Of a DNA stretch of 40,571 nt, positions 2,229-39,129 are shown piece by piece. The notes beneath the pieces were generated by a model. That model worked only from the letters and a program-made list of their open reading frames with translations. It was not told where the DNA came from and did not search any database. The position numbers and the translations under genes were made by a program. The stretch covers positions 1 through 40,571 of the forward strand of contig SSFW01000034.1 of the NCBI GenBank assembly GCA_008015595.1, written 5' to 3'. Position 1 is the first letter of the stretch; each line of letters starts with the position of its first letter. Source of the stretch: Nitrosomonas sp. Its GTDB lineage: Bacteria > Pseudomonadota > Gammaproteobacteria > Burkholderiales > Nitrosomonadaceae.

Positions 2229-2993
2229 TCAGTCGCTTGAGGAGTTTCTCTCAGCAGTAATAATAAATGCGTGACATAACGAACTTCCCATTAATGGAAC
2301 ATTCCGAAATACCCATTTTAAAAAAGGAGTCTCTAGTACCCACTGGAAACGAGCCAATTTTGAAGGAAGCATTGGTAACCAAAATAACTGAATATTACTT
2401 AGATTATTTTTTCTCATTAAATTGATAATATTAGCAGGAGTTTCATAACGAAGGTGCATGGGTTTTCCTTGTAGTCTACGCAGAAAACTTTCAATAAAAT
2501 GAACAATGCACCATCGATTTAATGCATCAACCCAGATTTTTCCACCTACCTTTGTAGCTGAAGCTAGTTCAGCAATCACAGTGTTAGAGTTTTCAAGTGC
2601 TTGTGTTACGCCAAAACAAATAGCGCCATCAAAAATACCAGTGCGTAATGGAATTTTAGTTGCATCTGCAACACACCATTCTATTGAAGAATAATTTCTT
2701 AATTGAGCTTTCTTTAAAGTTGGGAATGAATAATCTAGACCGATAACATACATCCCTTGATCTACAAGAAATTTAGAGTAAGTTCCTGCTCCACAACCAA
2801 GATCTAGCCATACTCCTTTTTGAAGTTTATTATTTTCCTTTCTCCAAACTTGTACAAAATAGCATAAGCGTGTTTCTAAGCCAGAGACAGACCACCCTGC
2901 AATCCCTGCATCATCTTGCGCGTGTGTTGCAAACTTTTCAAACAGTTTGCGCCACTTTTCTTCAAATTGATGCCTTACTGGTAATTTTGGCAT
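2229..2993 (-). CDS. class I SAM-dependent methyltransferase
   Basis: 254 aa; GVWLDLGCGAGTYSKFL (motif I), VIGLDYSFPTLKKA, CVADATKIPLRTGIFDGAICFGV. The 5' end overlaps the upstream CDS by 32 bp. Confidence 0.85.
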   Translation of the reverse strand: MPKLPVRHQFEEKWRKLFEKFATHAQDDAGIAGWSVSGLETRLCYFVQVWRKENNKLQKGVWLDLGCGAGTYSKFLVDQGMYVIGLDYSFPTLKKAQLRNYSSIEWCVADATKIPLRTGIFDGAICFGVTQALENSNTVIAELASATKVGGKIWVDALNRWCIVHFIESFLRRLQGKPMHLRYETPANIINLMRKNNLSNIQLFWLPMLPSKLARFQWVLETPFLKWVFRNVPLMGSSLCHAFIITAERNSSSD

Positions 2994-4296
2994 TTTTTAG
3001 AATCAAATGTTCATGGTCTGATGTGGTACTTGATTGTGAGTTTTCCGTAACTGATTGCCGCACTATTTTTAATAAAACTGCCAATATAACAAAGTAGTGA
3101 TAAAGAAGATCAAAATAAGACAATCCTAAAAAGGCACCGCCAACAGCATAACCCACAATACTAACCTGGATCATAGAGGCAAGATCATATGCCCATTTAT
3201 TTGATAAGGATGTTTTAGAAATTTTTATAATTGTACTAGCTGTTTTCCAACCCATAACTAACAAGCTCAAGTAAATTATTAAACCAATAAAACCATGTTC
3301 ACCAATTAATTCAAAATAAATACTATGAGCATCCTGATATCTTCCTCCCTCAGCTACAATATCAGGAGCATAGGTTAAATAATTTTCTTTAGTAAAACAA
3401 TCGAATCCTCCGCCCAATGGACGTGCTAATGCAAGTTTTGTAGCAAACTCCCAGGCCAGAAGTCGTCCTTTAGCAGAGCTATCCCTTTCTTCTTCTGTAC
3501 TGCTAATAGTTCCCATTCGCTGATGCCATGAATCTGGCATGAAATTATATAGAAGTGGCGCAAATAAAATAATTACAATAAATGGAGCAAGTTTTTTCCG
3601 GCTTTTTAACCAAAGGAAAAAACCAATTGCTACAATTGCTAATAATGCACCGCGTGATTGAGTTCCTAGAATAGCCACTGGTATTAGTATCATAGCGAAA
3701 ACTAACCCTGATCGGAGCCATGGCTGAATTGTATTGAGGTACAAATACCAAAATAATGGGAATACTGAAACCAATGCCAAGCCAATTTCCGTATTACCAG
3801 ATATAAAACTACCTGCTGGCCCTAGTACATGCTGACTACCACCTGTCGTAAGCGTAAATACACCGCCTTTGATACCATAGTACCCTATTGATAAAGCTAT
3901 AACCCAAATAAAATTATGAATTTTCTCTTTGTCGGTAATTATCCAAGGTATCATCAAAGCAATTAATTGTATTTTGATAACCTTTTCCCACTGAGTCCAA
4001 GAAATATCCGGTTGTATAGAAAAAAAAGTGGTAATCAGAAACCAGATATTTAGAATAATTAAGAGGCTAAAAATTGGTGACCAAAAATAAGTAATATTTT
4101 TACGAGCAATAACAAGCGATAAAATAATGGCAGCTGCCGCAATGACTCCAAAGGGGAAATTATATGCAAACCCCCACCCTAACCGATGCGGATTCATATA
4201 ACCAATCCAAGCCCATAAATAAACTCCGATCTGAGGTTTCTTAAAAACAAGGGGCAAGGCTCCAAAGAAAATAATCGTAACTAAAATATCCCTCAT
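2962..4296 (-). CDS. O-antigen ligase/polymerase family protein, resembling exosortase-A-associated O-glycosylation ligase
   Basis: 444 aa multi-TM; N-terminus MRDILVTIIFFGALPLVFKKPQIGVYLWAWIGYMNPHRLGWGFAYNFPFG matches the exosortase-A-associated ligase family as I recall it; GGFDCF...DAHSIYFELIGEHGFIGLIIYLSLL is O-antigen-ligase-like. Confidence 0.82.
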   Translation of the reverse strand: MRDILVTIIFFGALPLVFKKPQIGVYLWAWIGYMNPHRLGWGFAYNFPFGVIAAAAIILSLVIARKNITYFWSPIFSLLIILNIWFLITTFFSIQPDISWTQWEKVIKIQLIALMIPWIITDKEKIHNFIWVIALSIGYYGIKGGVFTLTTGGSQHVLGPAGSFISGNTEIGLALVSVFPLFWYLYLNTIQPWLRSGLVFAMILIPVAILGTQSRGALLAIVAIGFFLWLKSRKKLAPFIVIILFAPLLYNFMPDSWHQRMGTISSTEEERDSSAKGRLLAWEFATKLALARPLGGGFDCFTKENYLTYAPDIVAEGGRYQDAHSIYFELIGEHGFIGLIIYLSLLVMGWKTASTIIKISKTSLSNKWAYDLASMIQVSIVGYAVGGAFLGLSYFDLLYHYFVILAVLLKIVRQSVTENSQSSTTSDHEHLILKNAKITSKASI

Positions 4297-8599: not shown

Positions 8600-10036
8600 C
8601 TAATTTTTCTTAAATAACTGGATAAATTCTAGGTAGCCAGCTTTATTAAACTTTATTGTTAACCCATAATAAACCAAAGCTCCAGAGATAATCATAATAG
8701 CGAGTTCAAGTAATTTATTTAGATTGTTTCCTAATAATAAATCTACACCCCATACGACAAAATACATTCCAATACCTGACGCCATAATTGGGATAAGGAC
8801 GTGGAGTAAGTCTTTAAGGCTTAATCCTATAACAACAAGTGATCGATGATAGTTAATGAAAAGTATGATTGGGAAAAAAGTTACCCAAACCAACGCTACA
8901 CCGGTAATTCCCCATTGAACTCCTATCAAAAGCGCAATTGGCATTAATACAGCAGATAACAAGACATTTTTTAGTGCAATCTCGGGATGCCCCAGCGCGT
9001 CTGTTGCTGATGGGAGAAAATTAGCTATAACGCGAAATGGCATTACTAGTGTCAATAATTGTAATGGCAATACTGCAGTAAGCCATTTTTCCCCCAAAAA
9101 TAAAAATACTAATTCATAGGCAATACTGGATATTCCCCACAATACGGGAAAAGCAATGAGCGATAGTATGCGAATCGACTTTAATACAAAATTACGAAAT
9201 CTTAATTGATCTTCTTGGACTTTTGTAAATACTGGAAATGCTACTTGACCAATTACCGATGAGATTCTCTGGACGGGTAAAGATGCCAAGTACATAGCAA
9301 CTGAATAATAACCCAATATTTCCTTACCGAGTACTTTACCTACTATCATTACATCAACTTGATTGTAAAAATACCAAAGAATACGTGTTAACGTAATATT
9401 TCCCCCAAAAGTCAGAAAACTTCGCATACCATCCAAAGAAAACTTCGGACGTATATAAAAAGGGGTTAGTACATTAAATACAATCATCTTATACACATTG
9501 ACCAAAAGGCTACCATAAATAAGAGCCCAAACCCCATAATTTAAGTAAGCTAAAATAAGAGTAACTAAGCTACCAATAATGGCTGCAATAAAATCAATTA
9601 ATGAGAGTTGCTTGAATTTAAGTTCTCGATAAAGCAGAGCTTGGGGAATTGTGATTGCTATTACCGTGAAAAACTGCAGTGATAGCACTCGAATAATTGA
9701 AATAAGCCGTTCATCATCAAAAAATTCAGCTATTAGAGGCGCAAGTAAATTGAGGATCGCGCATAAAGCTAAGTTTATAATGATGATAATAGCAAAAATT
9801 TGCTGCAATGCAGTATCACTCAACTCCTGCTTTTGTACTAGTGCTGGGGCAAGACCAGCTTCTGAGAGCATCAGCATAAATGCCAGAAAAACAGTGGCCA
9901 TTGCCAATAACCCATAATCTTCTGGATGTAATAGCCGCATGACAATAAGCGTGATACCCCAAGTAATCGCCTGAGCAGCTAATCTTCCCCCTGCCGTCCA
10001 TTTAATACCTGCGATTGCCTGTTCACGAATTGTCAT
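8600..10036 (-). CDS. lipopolysaccharide/oligosaccharide flippase (Wzx-like, MATE/MVF superfamily)
   Basis: 478 aa polytopic; KWTAGGRLAAQAITWGITLIVMRLLHPEDYGLLAMATVFLAFMLMLSEAGLAPALVQ is a classic polysaccharide biosynthesis flippase N-terminus. Confidence 0.92.
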   Translation of the reverse strand: MTIREQAIAGIKWTAGGRLAAQAITWGITLIVMRLLHPEDYGLLAMATVFLAFMLMLSEAGLAPALVQKQELSDTALQQIFAIIIIINLALCAILNLLAPLIAEFFDDERLISIIRVLSLQFFTVIAITIPQALLYRELKFKQLSLIDFIAAIIGSLVTLILAYLNYGVWALIYGSLLVNVYKMIVFNVLTPFYIRPKFSLDGMRSFLTFGGNITLTRILWYFYNQVDVMIVGKVLGKEILGYYSVAMYLASLPVQRISSVIGQVAFPVFTKVQEDQLRFRNFVLKSIRILSLIAFPVLWGISSIAYELVFLFLGEKWLTAVLPLQLLTLVMPFRVIANFLPSATDALGHPEIALKNVLLSAVLMPIALLIGVQWGITGVALVWVTFFPIILFINYHRSLVVIGLSLKDLLHVLIPIMASGIGMYFVVWGVDLLLGNNLNKLLELAIMIISGALVYYGLTIKFNKAGYLEFIQLFKKN

Positions 10037-30577: not shown

Positions 30578-33500
30578 TTACCTCCCTTTCTCGGTAAACC
30601 CTTTATCAGGTTCTCCAATCAAGGTATTGGATTCATAAATCGGTAAATTGGGACATTGTTTCCGATACTTAATATTCGGTGAAACCCACTCTTGCCACTC
30701 CGTATGACTCATATTACGCGTCAATTTATTACAAAGCTCATCTACCCAATCCGTGTTAGCCATCCACAGGCGCAACGTTTTGTCCGCACTTCCCGATAAA
30801 ATGTGGGAACCATCTGGGCTAAACACAGCGCTCGTAACCGCACCAAGATGTCCTGATAAGGGATCACCAACCGGCAAACCCGTTTTCACATCCCAAAGGC
30901 GCAACGTCATATCGTGACTGCCAGAAATAATACGTTGACTATCGGGGCTAAAAGCAACACTATTGATACGTGCTTCATGGCCTTGAATCGGTTCATTAAT
31001 CGACTCACCCGTCTGTGCATCCCATAACCGAATCGTTTTGTCTTTGCTACCCGAAGCAATATATTGACCATCGGGACTAACTGCCACACTAACGACGTGC
31101 CCAGTATGGCCTTCCATCGGACTACCCAATTTATTACCTGTCGCGACTTCCCAGCGCTGTAAGGTATGATCATAGCTACCGGACACAATGACTTTTCCAT
31201 CGGGACTAAAAGCTACGCTACGTACCATTTCTTCATGCCCGGATAACGGTTCCCCTTCCTGTTTTCCTGTATAAGCATTCCATAATCGGATGGTTTTATC
31301 TTTGCTCCCAGATGCAACGAGTTTACCATCCGGACTATACGCAACTGTTTCTACACCTTCGAGATGGCCTTTTAAGGGTTCACCAATCGGTAACCCAGTT
31401 TGCGCATCCCAGAATCGTAACGTACCATCACTGGCACCAGAAACAATACGTGACCCATCGGGACTATAGACCACACCATTGATTGTTCCTTCATGGCCTT
31501 GTAGTGGTTCATCAAGCGGTTGTGCTGTCCAAGCATTCCATAATCGCAGTGTTTTATCATCGCTACCCGACACAATCTTCTTGCCATCTGGGCTATAGGC
31601 TACACTCGTAACCATATCTTCATGTCCCAATAAAGGGGTATCGATGATGGGGTGATCACGAGTCGACCATAAACGAATGGTGCCATCTCGACTACCAGAA
31701 ACGATTTGCTGTGCATTTTCAATGAAAGCAACACTGGTAATTATTCCTTCATGGCCACGTAAGGAGTCGATTCGCTGTGTACCAGTCTGGCGATCCCATA
31801 ATCGCAGCAGTTTATCTTCACCACTCGATACAATCTGAGTTCCATCAGCAGAAAACGCAACACTAAGAATAGTGTTTGAGTGCCCTCGAATCGGCTCACC
31901 AACCGCACGACCAGTTTGGCTATTCCAAACGGTTAAGCGCTTATCTTCTCCCCCGGAAACGATTTCAAGTCCATCACTTGAGAAAGCGATCGCGCGAATC
32001 GCCCCATCTTGCGAGTTAGCCATTTCATGGAGCATCGTTCCTGATGCCAAATCCCACAATTGAATCACCCCTTTACTACCAATTGCGAGTTGCTGGCCAT
32101 TAGGAGAGAAGCTGATGCTAAAAATAGGTTGCAGGTTTTTAAAAGTTTTTACTCGGGATTTAGTGGATCGATGCCAAATTTGAATCTCCCCATTATGGTC
32201 AGCGATCGCAAATTGAAGACTATCATTGGAGATAGCCAATGCCGCGATATTGGGATCACTTAATGTCAAAAAGGGTTCACTCGGCCATGCTTCTGAGGGA
32301 TCCCAGAAATAACACTTACCTTCATTGCTCAGTGCAAGAACATAGGTTTTATCCTGCACCTGGGTGATTGCAAACCATGCCGCACCAATATTCCATATCT
32401 TATCCGTCGTTACTCTTTTATTCATGAGATCAATCAGTGCTGCATCGACCTTGCGATGATTCGGCGTAATCTGCTTTGCTGCTAACAGTTGCAACAGCGC
32501 CCGCTCATCGCCACCCGGACGCAGTCCATTGGTAATATCAAGGCTCTCCGATACCAACCGAAGGCTGATTGATTCTCGTTGCGCCAGTTTTGTTTCTTTT
32601 AACCGCTCTGCAGCCAAATCTTCTGCAGCAGCTTGTTTCTCAAGCGCAGTAGATAACGCCAGTTGGCGTTGCCGTTCTTTTTCTTTTGCGCGAATCTTCT
32701 CGATCTCAAGTTTCTTTAAACGCTCATCTCTTACCTGACTCACAACACCGACTAATCGATCATGAATGAGCTCAATGCGATTAATCCCTAATTGTTGATC
32801 AATACGCAGTAAGCGATGTTGACTAGTCAGTCGAGTCAATTGTTCTTCTGTTAAAAATTTATCTTGTAACGCTTGATCAACTGGATAGCTACTTCGATAC
32901 CGGCTCCCTTGTATCAAATGGGTTTCAATGAATTCGGATACTGTTTCTGGCATACCTGCCAGCGCTTCGTGGTAAAAATCCTGCAGAATATCCTGCCCCG
33001 CTTGTTGTAATAACTCAATATCAATTTTATGGTTTGGTAAACGTCGCTGATTGAGCTGATAACAACACAAGCTTAGTAAAACGGGTTCAATAATCGGTAA
33101 TGATTTCAGCTTAGATGCCTCGAGATTCCCTACAAAATCAACAAGCGGTTCAGCTACACCTTCGGCTAGCACTTCGGCACCGGCAGCTTTAACCGCTTCA
33201 ATGGCACGTTCCCGAAACATCGGTAATAAACGTAAGCGATTACGGAGCAATGAAGGCGCTTGCTCCTTCCAATTCTCAATCTCAGGAAGAAAATCTTCAC
33301 GAAATGAAAGCACGATTCGATAGCGTTGCGCCTGTAAATCCAATTTCGATAGGGTTTGCCGATGTTTATCGCCTATTGTCAATTCTTGTGGAATTCGATT
33401 CTCAATCAGGTCAGCTAATGCGTTGAGTGTTAATTGTGTTTGTTCGGGGTAATGCTCACCTTGCGAAAAAATTTCTTCAAATTGATCAAAAACGAGAACG

Positions 33501-33961
33501 GGTTTTAGCAAATAATTATCGCTACTCCAAATTTCAAGATCTCGCCGATGGAGATAACGCCATAATCCCTCGTTTTCATTTGGAGTTGGAAAATCGGCGT
33601 TTGCCCCCGTTAATGCACCTAATAACTTCTGCAATACTTGCTCTAGAGGTGGATAAGGTGCAGAAGGTCTGAAATCGATGCGTAAATGAATCGGGAAAAA
33701 ATGTTCTGCACGTAACAGTGGATAAAGTCCAGCTTGTAACAATGACGTTTTTCCTAAACCTGACTTACCATAAAGCATGGTCAATCCAGATAAGCGAATC
33801 ATGCGCAATAACTCGGCTGCTTCCTCCTTGCGCCCGTAAAAATAATCGTGCGCCTCTTCCTCATACGCTGCCAATCCTGACCATGGCGATTGGGGTGACA
33901 AAGCCACTGGTATCTGGGTATTCATCGATTGTAAAGATGATGAAACTTGCTCTACAGTCAT
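30578..33961 (-). CDS. nSTAND-type P-loop NTPase with coiled-coil linker and C-terminal WD40 propellers
   Basis: 1127 aa; SPWSGLAAYEEEAHDYFYGRKEEAAELLRMI nSTAND1-like entry motif, Walker A LYGKSGLGKTSLL, Walker B PVLVFDQFEEIF, charged coiled-coil (RLKKLEIEKIRAKEKERQRQLALSTALEKQ), about 13 WD repeats. Confidence 0.92.
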   Translation of the reverse strand: MTVEQVSSSLQSMNTQIPVALSPQSPWSGLAAYEEEAHDYFYGRKEEAAELLRMIRLSGLTMLYGKSGLGKTSLLQAGLYPLLRAEHFFPIHLRIDFRPSAPYPPLEQVLQKLLGALTGANADFPTPNENEGLWRYLHRRDLEIWSSDNYLLKPVLVFDQFEEIFSQGEHYPEQTQLTLNALADLIENRIPQELTIGDKHRQTLSKLDLQAQRYRIVLSFREDFLPEIENWKEQAPSLLRNRLRLLPMFRERAIEAVKAAGAEVLAEGVAEPLVDFVGNLEASKLKSLPIIEPVLLSLCCYQLNQRRLPNHKIDIELLQQAGQDILQDFYHEALAGMPETVSEFIETHLIQGSRYRSSYPVDQALQDKFLTEEQLTRLTSQHRLLRIDQQLGINRIELIHDRLVGVVSQVRDERLKKLEIEKIRAKEKERQRQLALSTALEKQAAAEDLAAERLKETKLAQRESISLRLVSESLDITNGLRPGGDERALLQLLAAKQITPNHRKVDAALIDLMNKRVTTDKIWNIGAAWFAITQVQDKTYVLALSNEGKCYFWDPSEAWPSEPFLTLSDPNIAALAISNDSLQFAIADHNGEIQIWHRSTKSRVKTFKNLQPIFSISFSPNGQQLAIGSKGVIQLWDLASGTMLHEMANSQDGAIRAIAFSSDGLEIVSGGEDKRLTVWNSQTGRAVGEPIRGHSNTILSVAFSADGTQIVSSGEDKLLRLWDRQTGTQRIDSLRGHEGIITSVAFIENAQQIVSGSRDGTIRLWSTRDHPIIDTPLLGHEDMVTSVAYSPDGKKIVSGSDDKTLRLWNAWTAQPLDEPLQGHEGTINGVVYSPDGSRIVSGASDGTLRFWDAQTGLPIGEPLKGHLEGVETVAYSPDGKLVASGSKDKTIRLWNAYTGKQEGEPLSGHEEMVRSVAFSPDGKVIVSGSYDHTLQRWEVATGNKLGSPMEGHTGHVVSVAVSPDGQYIASGSKDKTIRLWDAQTGESINEPIQGHEARINSVAFSPDSQRIISGSHDMTLRLWDVKTGLPVGDPLSGHLGAVTSAVFSPDGSHILSGSADKTLRLWMANTDWVDELCNKLTRNMSHTEWQEWVSPNIKYRKQCPNLPIYESNTLIGEPDKGFTEKGR
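30760..32340 (-). repeat. Coding tandem repeats (about 129 bp, 43 aa) specifying about 13 WD40 blades
   Basis: Recurring unit GHEGxVxSVAFSPDGxxIVSGSxDKTLRLWDAxTGxPxxEPLx; the last eight or so units (translation order) are nearly regular, the first ones diverged. Confidence 0.9.
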
Positions 33962-33964
33962 AAC

Positions 33965-35335
33965 CTAGCCACTCTGCTGGCGTTCCGATCGAATTAATTT
34001 TTTGAGTAGCGCATTGGTTTGCTCATTGGGTTGACCCAGTGGTGCATGACCGAAATGCAAATTATCCTTCCAGGCCAATGGAACCCGAATGTAACCTTCT
34101 GGATCGTAATTCTGATCAGCGATAATGGGAACGATAAAGATACGCCCTTGAATTGATTTGCTTCGATCGATCGCTTCATTCCATTCACGCCGGAAGAATT
34201 TCTCATCTAATTGATCAGCATCGCTGGAAATTAGCGGAATAAAATAGCGGCAAGTACGAATACCGTCTAGAATTCGCTCCCGGAAATCTTGGCCCGGTTC
34301 GATCGCCGATTTATCGAACCATATTTCATGCTCTGCAACACCCAATGTTTTCAGTGCCGCTACCAGTTGTATTGCTGCAGGCAAATCCGGCGCACGGCAA
34401 TAGCTAATGAAAAAGAGTGTATTTTTGGGAACCATTTCAACTTGGGATAATGGCGCTTGCTCATCTGCACCATGACGCGCTAACCAGCGCTGAGAAAGTT
34501 GCTGGATAAAAGATTGCGGAGAGATGTCGGATAGCACTTCGGTTCCTTCACTATAGCTTTCTAAAAAATAGATTAGCTCTTTTTCTGGCTGTAGTGCATC
34601 GATCAACCACTCACGTTTGCGTTGCGTATCTGACAATCGTTTTTGATTCATCAATCGCAAGAAAAAACGACTCAGCCACTCTGGAAAATTGCAGCCGATC
34701 AATAGCAAATTGCGTTGTTGTAATTCTGCAAAAAATTTAACCGGGACATGACTTCCCCTTGCGATCACGTTATGCACATATTCCAGCATATCCTCATCAT
34801 GAATCGCAAACATTGGCGCAGATCTTGATTTGCCAAACAAATACAATAGATAAACTTCTCCCGGTCGAGAACGCCAATCATTGGGCAAATCAGAGCCCTC
34901 GCTGGTCGGTAAATAAGGTGAATGAATAATTTCATTGACAGTCACTTGCGCTTGTAAGCTGCGTGCTAGTAAATCATCAGGTGTCAAAGTTACAAACAAT
35001 CGAAAATCACGAATTGCAGTTATTTGTTTGATTGCTTCGGGAAGCTCTGCATCAGTATTAGGCGTTAATTGTCCAATGACATCATGAATATCACCATAAA
35101 GATCCTGAATAGGGTGATCGCGCTTCAAGCGCGTCACAGCATCGTTCAACTCTTGGTGTGGCATTAGCACATCATGACCTAACGCATAGTCATACATTTT
35201 AAGTAACTGTTGGGCAATCTGCGACTGAAACGAGGATGAGCTGTTAAGAGAAGTGATCAATTGTGGACCCATTACAGGCACAACTAGTCCCTCTTCTATC
35301 GATTTCAGCAAACGATCCCAATTACGCTCATTCAT
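33965..35335 (-). CDS. TIR-domain protein with N-terminal degenerate SIR2-like domain
   Basis: 456 aa; C-terminus TLFFISYCRAPDLPAAIQLVAALKTLGVAEHEIWFDKSAIEPGQDFRERILDGIRTCRYFIPLISSDADQLDEKFFRREWNEAID is TIR. N-terminus SIEEGLVVPVMGPQLI...FRLFVTLTPDDLLARSL...VYLLYLFGKSRSAPMFAIHDEDMLEYV...LLLIGCNFPEWLSRFFLRLM follows the SIR2-like template. Confidence 0.85.
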   Translation of the reverse strand: MNERNWDRLLKSIEEGLVVPVMGPQLITSLNSSSSFQSQIAQQLLKMYDYALGHDVLMPHQELNDAVTRLKRDHPIQDLYGDIHDVIGQLTPNTDAELPEAIKQITAIRDFRLFVTLTPDDLLARSLQAQVTVNEIIHSPYLPTSEGSDLPNDWRSRPGEVYLLYLFGKSRSAPMFAIHDEDMLEYVHNVIARGSHVPVKFFAELQQRNLLLIGCNFPEWLSRFFLRLMNQKRLSDTQRKREWLIDALQPEKELIYFLESYSEGTEVLSDISPQSFIQQLSQRWLARHGADEQAPLSQVEMVPKNTLFFISYCRAPDLPAAIQLVAALKTLGVAEHEIWFDKSAIEPGQDFRERILDGIRTCRYFIPLISSDADQLDEKFFRREWNEAIDRSKSIQGRIFIVPIIADQNYDPEGYIRVPLAWKDNLHFGHAPLGQPNEQTNALLKKLIRSERQQSG

Positions 35336-35440
35336 GGTTTAACAATCTTTACCTTAACAATCCGGATTTTATGACGGAAATCGTCGTTGTGGTTAGTTTT
35401 TAGCGCAGAATAGGCCTTGTGATTTTCTTCACGTCAGATC

Positions 35441-35455
35441 ACCGTAAAATACGGT
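35441..35455. repeat. Small palindrome in the divergent promoter region between the TIR gene and the patatin gene
   Basis: accgta-aaa-tacggt within the 229-bp intergenic region 35336-35564. Confidence 0.4.
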
Positions 35456-35564
35456 AGCATAGTAGAACAAGAACACAACATATCATCTGCGTACTCCATT
35501 ATCAAAGAACAACAGTAGCAGATGCTTTTGATTGAACGCATGTTATCGAACAAGGAGCTTGCTC

Positions 35565-38291
35565 ATGGCCCACGATTCAACCCCAAACCCTCAATTAGCA
35601 ATCATTCTAGAAGCGATCCAAAATCGCGATTATCCAGACTCTATCGAGCAAATTAAAGCCTATGTTGCGATACTAGAAACGGAAGAACGTTTCTATCCGG
35701 CTCGACAATTACTCAGCCAAGCACGCGAGAAATATCGCTCGATTCGACAATTCCAATCAGAACCCACCGCAGTAAACTGGTGGCAAACCGATGCTGCGCA
35801 GGATGAGGTTTGGATTACCCAAAAGCAGGCTTTCTTTACGTATAAAAATCCTGAACTGCCACCTCGTACACGATTTATCGATTCGCTGTTATTGCTTGAC
35901 GAAATCGGGTTACGTGACTCGACCAATCGTGACGCAGAAACGCTAGCCTTAGGGGGGAGTATCTATAAAAGAAAGTGGCAGCATTTTGGTCAATTAGAAG
36001 ATCTCATTGAAGCATTATTCTTTTATCGCGCCGCATTTGAACGTAACCCTCAACAGGATAAGGGCTATGGTGGCGTCAATGCTGCGCTCATTCTCGATAT
36101 CTTGGCTGATCGTGCTAAGCAAATTGCACGCCGCAGTGGCATTAAACTCAATGAAAGCGAAGCCAGCAATTTTTCTGCACAAGCTGCTGCGATACGCCAA
36201 AATATGGTACTACAGGTTCCGGTTTGGCAAACTGAGCTCGAACAATTACCAGAGTCAGAGCATTTCTGGCCGCAAATCACATTTGCAGAAATTTATTTTG
36301 GCTTGCAGCAATATGATCAAGCCAAGGAATGGTTGCAAAAAGCCAATGTAGCTCATGCAATCAATTGGAAAAAGCAAACTATATTCAGCCAGTTGCTGCA
36401 AATCGCGCGCCTACAAGACTTGATGATTCCGAAAGAAAGCGATCAGCCTGAAAATTGGCTACCAGTTTGGCAAATACTCGCGTTAATCATTGGTGAAGAT
36501 AGCGCTCAGCGTGCCTTCTCATCAGGAACTGGTAAAGTCGGATTATCGTTATCGGGCGGTGGTTTCCGAGCTTCATTTTTCCACCTGGGCGTCATGGCTA
36601 GGCTTGCTGAAATCGATGCATTACGCAGTATCGAAGCATTATCGACAGTATCGGGCGGCAGCATCGTCGGTGCTCATTATTACTTGGAAGTACAAAAATT
36701 GCTTGAAAGCAAACCAGACAAAGCAATCACACGTAATGATTACATCGAAATCGTGCGACGCATCCAAGACAATTTCCTGAAAGGCGTACAAACCAATATC
36801 AAACTGCAAACATTTGCAAGTTTGACTGATAATCTCGATGTATTCTTCCGCAAAAAACATTATTCTCGCAGCCACCGCCTCGGGGAATTATATGAGTCAG
36901 AAATTTATCAATCGGTTGACGATGGGCATACGAACCAGATACCGCGCATCATGCCTGAATTGCTTATCAAACCCGAAGGGGAAGCGGATACTCAGACGCA
37001 TAAACCAAAGCACTATAATTGGCTACGCCGAGCCAAAATCCCAGCGCTCGTGATCAATAGTACTTCATTGAACTCCGGACATAATTGGCAGTTTACCGCG
37101 CGTTCCATGGGCGAGCCACCCAGCCAAATCGATGGTGAAATTGATAACAATACACGCTATCGCCGTATGTACTATGAACATACCCCTAACGAAACCCTAC
37201 AAAAATATCGCTTGGGCTACGCCGTGGCAGCCTCAGCTTGCGTTCCCGGTTTATTTGAGCCATTAACAATCGCTGATCTGTATCAAGATAAAATCGTGCG
37301 CCTAGTCGATGGTGGCGTACATGATAACCAAGGAGTTGCAGGCTTGCTCGATGAAGGTTGTACGCGCATTCTGTGCAGCGATGCCTGTGGCCAAATGGAT
37401 GACGTCGATCAGCCTTCCGATTCACGTCCTGGTGTCGTACTCCGCGCTAGCTCAATCTTACAGGATCGAGTACGGGAAGCGGAATACCAAGATCTTAGCA
37501 ACCGCTTGGATAGTCATGCGCTCGATGGCTTATTTTTTGTGCACACCAAAAAAGAGCTTGAATCCCAACCATTGGATTGGATCAATTGCCAAGATCCTCG
37601 TACGCCTGCTCATCCGAAAGACCCTAAAACATCGTATGGCATCGATCGGGAACTACAAAAGAAGATTGCAGGGATCCGCACCGATCTTGATGCATTTACC
37701 GAAGTTGAAGCTTATGCCATCATGGCAAGCGGTTATCGCATTGCTAAACGGGAATTTGAGCTGCTACAAAATCAATACCAAAAAGAAGGTCATACCGATC
37801 ATTGGGGCGGATACGATATCGACGCACCGGGAACCGATTGGCCTTTCCGTAAACTAGAACCCATCATGGGGCTCAAAGCTGAAGCTAACAAACAAAGTCA
37901 AGATTTACATTTTCAGCTCCACGTTGCACGCAAAATATTCTTTAAAACCTACGATTTGCGACTGGATTATCGCATCATCGTTTGGTCATTATTAGCGCTG
38001 CTAATAGCAGGTATACTCAGTTTCCTTTATCAACAATGGAACACGCCACTGGCTGACGCGCTCCATTTAGGATCGCTCACATGGGGAAAATTATTCAGCC
38101 TAGTGATATTAATGTTCATTAGTGCATTGATACCAATGGTTCATTTGCTAAGTCCGAGTAATAAAGTAGCTAATATTTTCAAATTTATGGTTGCAGCCGG
38201 CGGTAGTTTATTAGCAAAATTTCATCTGGCAGTGCTCGATCGCTGGTTCTTGAGACGCGGCAAACTTGAGCGATTGTTGAAATTAAAATAA
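35565..38291 (+). CDS. patatin-like phospholipase with N-terminal TPR-like/DUF4071-like region and C-terminal TM helices
   Basis: ATG 35565 preceded by aaggag (35552-35557). KVGLSLSGGGFRASFFHLGVMARLAEIDALRSIEALSTVSGGSIVGAHYY (oxyanion hole and nucleophile Ser), LVDGGVHDNQGVAGLL (catalytic Asp). N-terminal ETLALGGSIYKRKW...GYGGVNAALILDILA. C-terminal hydrophobic helices IIVWSLLALLIAGILSFLY and LFSLVILMFISALIPMVHLL. Confidence 0.92.
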   Translation: MAHDSTPNPQLAIILEAIQNRDYPDSIEQIKAYVAILETEERFYPARQLLSQAREKYRSIRQFQSEPTAVNWWQTDAAQDEVWITQKQAFFTYKNPELPPRTRFIDSLLLLDEIGLRDSTNRDAETLALGGSIYKRKWQHFGQLEDLIEALFFYRAAFERNPQQDKGYGGVNAALILDILADRAKQIARRSGIKLNESEASNFSAQAAAIRQNMVLQVPVWQTELEQLPESEHFWPQITFAEIYFGLQQYDQAKEWLQKANVAHAINWKKQTIFSQLLQIARLQDLMIPKESDQPENWLPVWQILALIIGEDSAQRAFSSGTGKVGLSLSGGGFRASFFHLGVMARLAEIDALRSIEALSTVSGGSIVGAHYYLEVQKLLESKPDKAITRNDYIEIVRRIQDNFLKGVQTNIKLQTFASLTDNLDVFFRKKHYSRSHRLGELYESEIYQSVDDGHTNQIPRIMPELLIKPEGEADTQTHKPKHYNWLRRAKIPALVINSTSLNSGHNWQFTARSMGEPPSQIDGEIDNNTRYRRMYYEHTPNETLQKYRLGYAVAASACVPGLFEPLTIADLYQDKIVRLVDGGVHDNQGVAGLLDEGCTRILCSDACGQMDDVDQPSDSRPGVVLRASSILQDRVREAEYQDLSNRLDSHALDGLFFVHTKKELESQPLDWINCQDPRTPAHPKDPKTSYGIDRELQKKIAGIRTDLDAFTEVEAYAIMASGYRIAKREFELLQNQYQKEGHTDHWGGYDIDAPGTDWPFRKLEPIMGLKAEANKQSQDLHFQLHVARKIFFKTYDLRLDYRIIVWSLLALLIAGILSFLYQQWNTPLADALHLGSLTWGKLFSLVILMFISALIPMVHLLSPSNKVANIFKFMVAAGGSLLAKFHLAVLDRWFLRRGKLERLLKLK

Positions 38292-38334: not shown

Positions 38335-39129
38335 ATGACCCGCTACAAAGAAGGCGATTCTGGTAAGGATATTAAACGCATCCAAACAGCGCTAAAAGAT
38401 AAGGGGTTCAATCCGGGTGCACTCGATGGTGAATTCGGTCCAGGTACAGAGGCTGCCGTCATCGCTTTCCAGAAAAGTGAAGGTCTAGTGGCGGATGGGG
38501 TAATTGGTACCCAAACCCTGAAAGCGCTGGGTCTAATTGAATCAGATCAACCTGAATCCTTTGATCTACAAGGTGTTACTTCGATTAATGTATCGAAAAT
38601 GTTCCCACAAACCCCCATCAGTCATATCAAAACCCACCTTCCTTTTGTGCTTGATGCCCTAAAAGATGCGGGCTTAGCGGATAGGCAAATGATACTCATG
38701 GCTCTTGCTACGATTCGTGCTGAGACTGCAAGTTTCGAACCGATTAGCGAGGGCAAATCGAAATACAACACATCGCCCAATGGTCACCCATTTGATTTAT
38801 ACGATAACCGCAAAGATTTAGGCAATCGAGGTAAACCTGATGGAGATCGCTATAAAGGACGGGGATTTGTACAATTAACCGGGCGAGCCAATTATACAAA
38901 ATTCGGCAAAGAAATCAGCCAAGATCTAATCAATAATCCTGACTTAGCGAATGATCCCGGTATTGCAGCGCAACTGTTAGCCCGCTTTCTGAAAAAGGGT
39001 GAACGTAAAATTAGGGCATGCTTGGATGACCATGATTTAGCTGGAGCGAGAAAAGTCGTCAATGGTGGAAAGCATGGATTGGTTGAATTTTCAGAGGCTT
39101 ACAACATAGGAAACAAGCTTTTTGCCTGA
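38335..39129 (+). CDS. peptidoglycan-binding (PG_binding_1) + GH19 chitinase/lysozyme-like lysin
   Basis: 264 aa; YKEGDSGKDIKRIQTALKDKGFNPGALDGEFGPGTEAAVIAFQKSEGLVADGVIGTQTLKAL, then LMALATIRAETASFEPISE...DRYKGRGFVQLTGRANYTKFG. No signal peptide; SD gaggaa upstream. Confidence 0.9.
   Translation: MTRYKEGDSGKDIKRIQTALKDKGFNPGALDGEFGPGTEAAVIAFQKSEGLVADGVIGTQTLKALGLIESDQPESFDLQGVTSINVSKMFPQTPISHIKTHLPFVLDALKDAGLADRQMILMALATIRAETASFEPISEGKSKYNTSPNGHPFDLYDNRKDLGNRGKPDGDRYKGRGFVQLTGRANYTKFGKEISQDLINNPDLANDPGIAAQLLARFLKKGERKIRACLDDHDLAGARKVVNGGKHGLVEFSEAYNIGNKLFA

What the first reader, a model, noticed from the sequence alone, without database searches (positions are those of the whole stretch)
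30578..38291. Candidate TIR / STAND-WD40 / patatin conflict (anti-phage?) locus
Three proteins with immune-type architectures sit back to back. A TIR protein and an nSTAND NTPase with a WD40 propeller are encoded 3 bp apart (TAG GTT ATG). A membrane-anchorable patatin-like phospholipase is divergently transcribed from a 229-bp shared intergenic region. The STAND protein has no N-terminal effector domain, only about 25 residues before the nSTAND motif, so its effector is probably supplied in trans. The TIR (NAD+ cleavage) and the patatin (membrane phospholipid cleavage) are two candidates. TIR, STAND and patatin modules are each known separately in bacterial immunity (TIR-SAVED/Thoeris, Avs/bNACHT, CBASS patatins). 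I do not recognise this three-part arrangement as a named system. The defence role is inference.
Basis: partly seen in the sequence, partly recalled or inferred. Interest (0 to 1): 0.85.

Follow-up and report, generated by a model that had tools for sequence, protein, structure and literature searches.

The report
Split NLR-like TIR and sensor pair
Two of the three genes form a conserved, swappable-sensor alarm pair that probably makes an infected bacterium destroy its own NAD+ (a bacterial relative of animal and plant NLR immunity split over two proteins), while the third gene (patatin) belongs to a different system and is only a neighbour here.

Summary
That domain matches the Thoeris ThsA SIR2 domain by sequence profile and by fold, but its catalytic Asn and His are lost, while the TIR catalytic Glu is invariant. 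In 41 of 41 distinct loci that keep both domains, an nSTAND1 NTPase gene follows directly, even where the effector is only about 25% identical; the two genes diverge together (Mantel r 0.95-0.97). The sensor half is exchanged (WD40, TPR, FGE/C-lectin, unknown) and evolves faster. In 16 Nitrosomonas orthologues the putative ligand hot-spots of several C-terminal WD40 blades are invariant. The patatin is not a partner: no other locus has it beside the pair, and 8 of its 10 orthologues sit beside another gene, an NDT/DRHyd-like + TPR-S protein missing here. Best reading: a split bacterial NLR in which an invader-triggered STAND sensor switches on a pseudo-SIR2-TIR NADase. The immune role, the ligand and the NADase activity are inferred. 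I found no description of this pair in the library, so I rate it a new variant of a known kind.

The parts
33965..35335 (-). Effector gene: 456-aa pseudo-SIR2 (residues 1 to about 290) + TIR (308-413) protein. SIR2 catalytic Asn/His replaced (T118, F167); TIR catalytic Glu present (E384).
   Evidence: Pfam TIR_2 1e-14 and SIR2_2 in 18 of 19 relatives; profile hit to ThsA SIR2, E 8e-8, residue by residue; AF2 model pLDDT 79.9 with Foldseek best hits ThsA, Avs5, KomC, DSR2; E384 invariant in 24 of 24
30578..33961 (-). Sensor/switch gene: nSTAND1-type NTPase (Walker A 65-72, Walker B 155-163), helical linker, then a WD40 propeller region (ten regular 43-aa units up to residue 1066), 1127 aa, 3 bp downstream of the effector gene
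   Evidence: relatives score Pfam nSTAND1 PF20703
33962..33964 (-). 3-bp gap between effector stop and sensor start: likely one operon with translational coupling; other loci have 3 bp, a few bp or an overlap
35565..38291 (+). Patatin-like phospholipase with N-terminal TPR-S domain and hydrophobic C-terminal segments, 908 aa. Judged NOT part of the pair; an orphan member of a separate TPR-S/patatin module
   Evidence: Pfam TPR-S 1.5e-12, Patatin 4.7e-15; orthologue neighbourhoods
35336..35564 (.). 229-bp divergent intergenic region between effector and patatin; no detectable similarity to the upstream regions of eight patatin orthologues

Best explanation
The effector and sensor genes (30578-35335, minus strand) form a two-protein NLR-like alarm. 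The nSTAND1-WD40 protein is the switch: its WD40 propellers hold it closed until they bind an invader-derived ligand, after which the NTPase opens and oligomerises. The pseudo-SIR2-TIR protein is the executioner supplied in trans. Its SIR2-like domain has lost NADase chemistry and most likely serves as the assembly or docking domain (SIR2 folds form tetramers and filaments in ThsA, Avs5 and KomC). Clustering on the opened STAND oligomer activates the TIR domains, which cleave NAD+ and stop the infected cell. The sensor end is exchangeable between loci. The patatin is not a component. Shown: domains, catalytic-residue status, 41/41 linkage, co-divergence, sensor exchange, hot-spot conservation. 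Inferred: ligand, oligomerisation, physical contact, NAD+ cleavage, anti-phage phenotype.
For: nSTAND1 directly downstream in 41/41 loci with both effector domains, domain-to-domain gap 12-124 bp; effector and NTPase distances correlate, Mantel r 0.972 and 0.954 against null maxima of 0.41 and 0.35. Patchy spread (22 of 85 Nitrosomonas genomes); the G419 pair (L074) is closest to a Myxococcales pair (66-67% identity), as expected of transferred defence genes. TIR Glu invariant 24/24, SIR2 His lost 24/24, Asn lost 23/24. Sensor less conserved than effector and NTPase (58 vs 76-80% in the nearest orthologue) and replaced on a fixed chassis: L074 TPR beside L023 WD40 (100/97 support), L064 TPR beside L062 WD40 (100/99). 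Hot-spots of several C-terminal blades invariant in 16 orthologues.
Against: No activity, interaction or phage data. No single-protein fusion of effector and NTPase was found. The window genes score no curated defence model above cut-off, and the window's other genes are housekeeping or exopolysaccharide, not a dense defence island. The window protein's own SIR2_2 score is below Pfam's cut-off (16.2 against 24.5 bits); the assignment rests on the family profile and the fold.
Confidence: 0.7

Rival explanations
1. Three-part system as first read: STAND sensor, TIR and patatin act together, with the TIR making a NAD-derived messenger that the patatin's TPR-S domain senses, so the membrane is attacked as a second arm.
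For: Divergent neighbours in the window. The patatin's usual neighbour is itself a TIR-superfamily-like (NDT/DRHyd) protein, and here its place is taken by the TIR protein. G400 and G469 carry both modules within about 20 kb.
Against: No other locus has patatin adjacent; both families in only 4 of 85 genomes, against about 2.2 expected by chance (17 x 11/85); the window patatin's upstream DNA matches no other patatin's.
Confidence: 0.1
2. The SIR2-like domain is not a dead scaffold but a nucleotide sensor (ADP-ribose or NAD+ binding) that regulates the TIR, like the ThsA SLOG domain.
For: Invariant residues in the SIR2 pocket region (G168, D182 in 24 of 24; H179-D180-E181 invariant in the closer 19) although the catalytic pair is gone.
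Against: No ligand evidence; fold similarity is to the SIR2 part of ThsA, and a dead fold can be kept for oligomerisation alone.
Confidence: 0.2
3. The pair is a house-keeping or developmental signalling switch, or a programmed-death module not aimed at phage.
For: STAND-WD40 proteins are also used in non-immune signalling; the conserved hot-spots of some blades could bind a host factor.
Against: Patchy presence, cross-phylum transfer, sensor exchange, and the NAD-cleaving TIR fold.
Confidence: 0.15

Closest known systems
Thoeris type I (ThsA SIR2-SLOG + ThsB TIR)
   Same: Uses a SIR2 and a TIR domain; the SIR2 half of the effector here is closest to ThsA by sequence profile and fold
   Different: SIR2 and TIR are on one chain, SIR2 catalytic Asn and His are lost, no SLOG domain, and a STAND sensor is always next door
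Avs5 / AVAST type 5 (SIR2-nSTAND3, PMC12931631)
   Same: STAND NTPase with repeat sensor plus a SIR2-fold domain; NAD+-depleting logic
   Different: There the active SIR2 is fused to an nSTAND3 NTPase; here a dead SIR2 is fused to TIR on a separate protein and the NTPase is nSTAND1
Bacterial CARD-NLR systems (PMC13236601 and references in it)
   Same: NLR-like STAND protein whose death effector is a separate protein
   Different: They use a CARD-containing component and gasdermin, phospholipase or nuclease effectors; no CARD found here
nSTAND1 conflict systems (PMC8195603, PMC10907252)
   Same: nSTAND1 NTPases with varied C-terminal sensors, including FGE/C-lectin, and TIR among their effectors
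   Different: In the passages read, effectors are fused N-terminally or joined through EAD/Death-like adaptors; the pseudo-SIR2-TIR partner in trans is not mentioned
Swarozyc / TEP1 (DUF4062, PMC13174449)
   Same: TIR-like NADase immunity; the preprint places its TIR-like domain in eukaryotic TEP1 (TEP1's NACHT + WD40 part is from general knowledge)
   Different: Different TIR-like family; bacterial Swarozyc senses portal directly, without a STAND partner
Apaf-1 apoptosome
   Same: NTPase followed by WD40 propellers, effector recruited in trans (general knowledge)
   Different: Different STAND clade; caspase instead of TIR; similarity is of layout only

Membership tests
TIR-domain NADases | TIR fold with catalytic Glu | tested here: met
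   TIR_2 1e-14; E384 invariant in 24 of 24 and aligned with the Glu of AbTIR in the profile hit
TIR-domain NADases | NAD+ cleavage | not testable with these tools
   needs purified protein or NAD+ measurement
SIR2-like domain | SIR2 Rossmann fold | tested here: met
   SIR2_2 in 18 of 19 relatives; ThsA by profile E 8e-8 and fold E 4e-11
SIR2-like domain | Catalytic Asn and His of active SIR2 NADases | tested here: not met
   ThsA TTNYD Asn aligns with Thr/Ser and the HG His with Phe/Leu/Tyr; His absent in 24/24, Asn in 23/24 (kept in L071)
Thoeris type I | Separate TIR ThsB and SIR2-SLOG ThsA with active SIR2 | tested here: not met
   SIR2 and TIR fused, SIR2 residues lost, no SLOG hit
Avs (AVAST) | Effector fused N-terminally to the STAND NTPase | tested here: not met
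   Only about 25 residues precede the NTPase motif in the window protein
nSTAND1 STAND NTPase | nSTAND1 domain with Walker A/B | tested here: met
   Relatives score PF20703 well above cut-off; Walker motifs in the window protein. In the window protein's own table nSTAND1 is crowded out by WD40 models; its NTPase part is 55-76% identical to relatives that score
CARD-NLR systems | CARD-containing component | tested here: not met
   No such domain in the two proteins by Pfam or PADLOC
TPR-S/DRHyd-patatin module | Patatin adjacent to an NDT/DRHyd-like TPR-S protein | tested here: not met
   8 of 10 orthologues have it; absent beside the window patatin; a remote one (29% identity) on another contig
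Anti-phage defence system | Protection from phage | not testable with these tools
   experiment needed

The most novel reading that the evidence does not exclude
A split bacterial NLR lineage in which one constant effector, a catalytically dead SIR2 fold fused to an active TIR, is driven by a series of exchangeable nSTAND1 sensors. The dead SIR2 acts as the recruitment and filament platform. WD40 sensors come in two modes: fixed recognition (invariant hot-spots in 16 orthologues) and rapid diversification (near-identical repeats that differ at the hot-spots, as in fungal HET-type NLRs).
Probability: 0.35. Interest if true: 0.75.

Novelty: new variant of a known kind. Interest (0 to 1): 0.57.

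Why it matters
It would add an NLR design in which sensor and executioner are separate genes inherited as a unit, with a decayed NADase domain recycled as an adaptor. The strict pairing and the sensor exchange make it a tractable model for how NLR sensors are swapped. The conserved hot-spots in the Nitrosomonas sensors and the homogenised repeats in G451 give specific residues to mutate to ask what bacterial WD40 receptors recognise. The genus includes the ammonia oxidisers that drive nitrification, whose phage defences are, to my knowledge, little studied.

Tried and rejected
Three-gene system: rejected on neighbourhoods. Pair as Thoeris or Avs: rejected on architecture and catalytic residues. 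Effector-STAND fusion as proof of interaction: apparent long frames (G805, 1132 aa; G836) are overlapping frames, not fusions. Diversity-generating retroelement on FGE sensors: no clear template repeat in L065; L066's 71% match is to another gene and was not followed up. Empty insertion site: the window's flanking genes DUF3025 and YchJ are not neighbours in relatives, so uninformative. Conserved promoter shared by patatin orthologues: none found. Mobile carriage: no phage record; one Paraburkholderia megaplasmid (46.5% identity). First AF2 model (pLDDT 70) replaced by one with a more diverse alignment. Paper searches found no such pair; the 2020 Burroughs and Aravind survey of prokaryotic immune components, which I believe defined TPR-S, was not held.

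Full report
WHAT IS THERE. The window lies in a Nitrosomonas-like genome (2.55 Mb, 176 contigs); the closest relatives in the searches are Nitrosomonas. The STAND protein has Walker A at 65-72, Walker B at 155-163, and at least ten regular 43-aa WD40 units.

(a) The first 290 residues of the TIR protein are a SIR2-like domain. The window protein alone is weak (SIR2_2, 16.2 bits, below cut-off), but 18 of 19 relatives match (best 4e-7). A 13-sequence profile of the region hits ThsA at E 8e-8 with a residue-level alignment. The AlphaFold2 model (mean pLDDT 79.9) matches ThsA (E 4e-11), Avs5, KomC and DSR2. In that alignment the ThsA TTNYD Asn falls on Thr/Ser and the HG His on Phe/Leu/Tyr: the His is missing in 24 of 24 and the Asn in 23 of 24 relatives. 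So this is a pseudo-SIR2. The TIR Glu (E384), aligned with the Glu of AbTIR, is invariant. (b) The patatin has a TPR-S domain.

THE PAIR IS THE UNIT. Across 43 distinct loci from genome contigs, the genus (85 genomes), order and phylum samples (about 400 each) and plasmids, every locus that keeps both SIR2-like and TIR domains (41) has an nSTAND1 NTPase directly downstream on the same strand, domain-to-domain 12-124 bp. The two exceptions (L026, L055) lack a recognisable TIR domain. This holds down to about 25% effector identity. Effector and NTPase distances correlate at r 0.972 (SIR2) and 0.954 (TIR), against null maxima of 0.41 and 0.35. The correlation shows co-inheritance, not contact. 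The pair is patchy (22 of 85 Nitrosomonas genomes; rare outside: 10 of 399 in the order sample including the genus). It has crossed phyla: the G419 pair groups with Myxococcota, Acidobacteriota and Nitrosospira pairs.

SENSORS ARE EXCHANGED ON A FIXED CHASSIS. After the NTPase come WD40 repeats in most loci, TPR in L064 and L074 (in L074 only one weak TPR model match), FGE-sulfatase/C-lectin-type in L065 and L066, and nothing recognised in L058, L070, L071, L123, L140, L142. On the effector tree 7 label changes are needed at least; TPR/WD40 sister pairs have 100/97 and 100/99 support. In the nearest orthologue the sensor is 58% identical while effector and NTPase are 76-80%.

WD40 SURFACE. In each 43-aa unit the most variable positions between blades include 18, 20 and 36, which I take to be the top-face ligand hot-spots (R1-2, R1, D-1 of the WD40 literature; from my own knowledge, not modelled here). 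Among 16 Nitrosomonas orthologues (two clades; sensors 43-58% identical to the window's) these columns are far more conserved than other blade-variable columns (0.76 vs 0.49 in clade A, p 9e-5; 0.77 vs 0.33 in clade B, p 7e-10; columns treated as independent, so p values are rough). Several are invariant in all 16, e.g. blade 5 N/S, blade 6 E/K, blade 7 M/R/Y. More distant relatives carry mostly different residues there. This fits a fixed ligand for these blades, which may be foreign, a host factor or the protein itself. In G451 (L067) the repeats are 73% identical on average (up to 93%), and their differences concentrate at 36, 18, 17, 16, 35 and 20. That pattern of homogenised repeats with variable hot-spots is known from fungal HET-type NLRs; that comparison is from general knowledge.

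THE PATATIN IS A NEIGHBOUR. It has 10 orthologues above 900 bits in the genus. In 8 the adjacent gene is a ~450-aa protein with an NDT/DRHyd-like N-terminus (assigned by eye from motifs) and a TPR-S domain (Pfam on six of them; the others by similarity), in divergent, convergent or tandem order. None has the pair adjacent; G400 and G469 have both modules within about 20 kb. Both families occur together in 4 of 85 genomes, against about 2.2 expected. In the window the usual partner is absent; a remote homologue (29%) is on another contig. A functional link between the TIR and this orphan patatin cannot be excluded but nothing supports it.

MECHANISM. The chain I favour: ligand binds the sensor, the nSTAND1 NTPase opens and oligomerises, the pseudo-SIR2-TIR protein is recruited and clustered, NAD+ is cleaved, the infected cell stops. 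Each step after domain assignment is inference from how STAND, TIR and SIR2-fold proteins work elsewhere (Avs5, PMC12931631; CARD-NLR, PMC13236601; TIR activation by oligomerisation, PMC13174449).

NOVELTY. Searches of the held papers found nSTAND1 systems with fused effectors or adaptors (PMC8195603, PMC10907252) but no pseudo-SIR2-TIR + nSTAND1 pair. PADLOC gives only weak, partial matches and NCBIfam none above its cut-offs. Most subscription papers and current DefenseFinder models were not available, so an existing description cannot be excluded.

Noticed in passing
L067:4396-7890 (genome G451): STAND-WD40 paralogue whose WD40 repeats are 73% identical on average (max 93%), with differences concentrated at putative ligand hot-spots: looks like concerted, diversifying repeats as in fungal NLRs.
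   Followed up: partly
window 35565-38291; L098, L099, L100, L101, L102, L104, L106, L107: TPR-S patatin with a conserved neighbour, a ~450-aa NDT/DRHyd-like + TPR-S protein, in variable orientation: a separate candidate two-gene conflict module of its own.
   Followed up: partly
L143:4043-15902 (genome G577 contig 62): Four TIR-bearing ORFs in a row (211, 747, 671 and 1121 aa), a TIR array.
   Followed up: no
L102:12631-17756 (genome G400): A second TIR + STAND-WD40 pair (481-aa N-terminal TIR protein without detected SIR2-like domain, then a 1245-aa STAND-WD40) in the same island as the patatin and the pseudo-SIR2-TIR pair.
   Followed up: no
L065:5640-8084, L066:990-3176: Pseudo-SIR2-TIR pairs with nSTAND1-FGE/C-lectin sensors, the domain type diversified by retroelements elsewhere; L066 shows a 71% match of its 3' end to a neighbouring gene.
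   Followed up: partly
window 2962-4296, 8600-10036: Exosortase-A-associated O-glycosylation ligase and a flippase: part of an exopolysaccharide/exosortase locus.
   Followed up: no
window 38335-39129: Small phage-like lysozyme (PG_binding_1 + glycoside hydrolase 19) just downstream of the patatin; weak homologues also near patatin or pair loci in L098 and L060.
   Followed up: no
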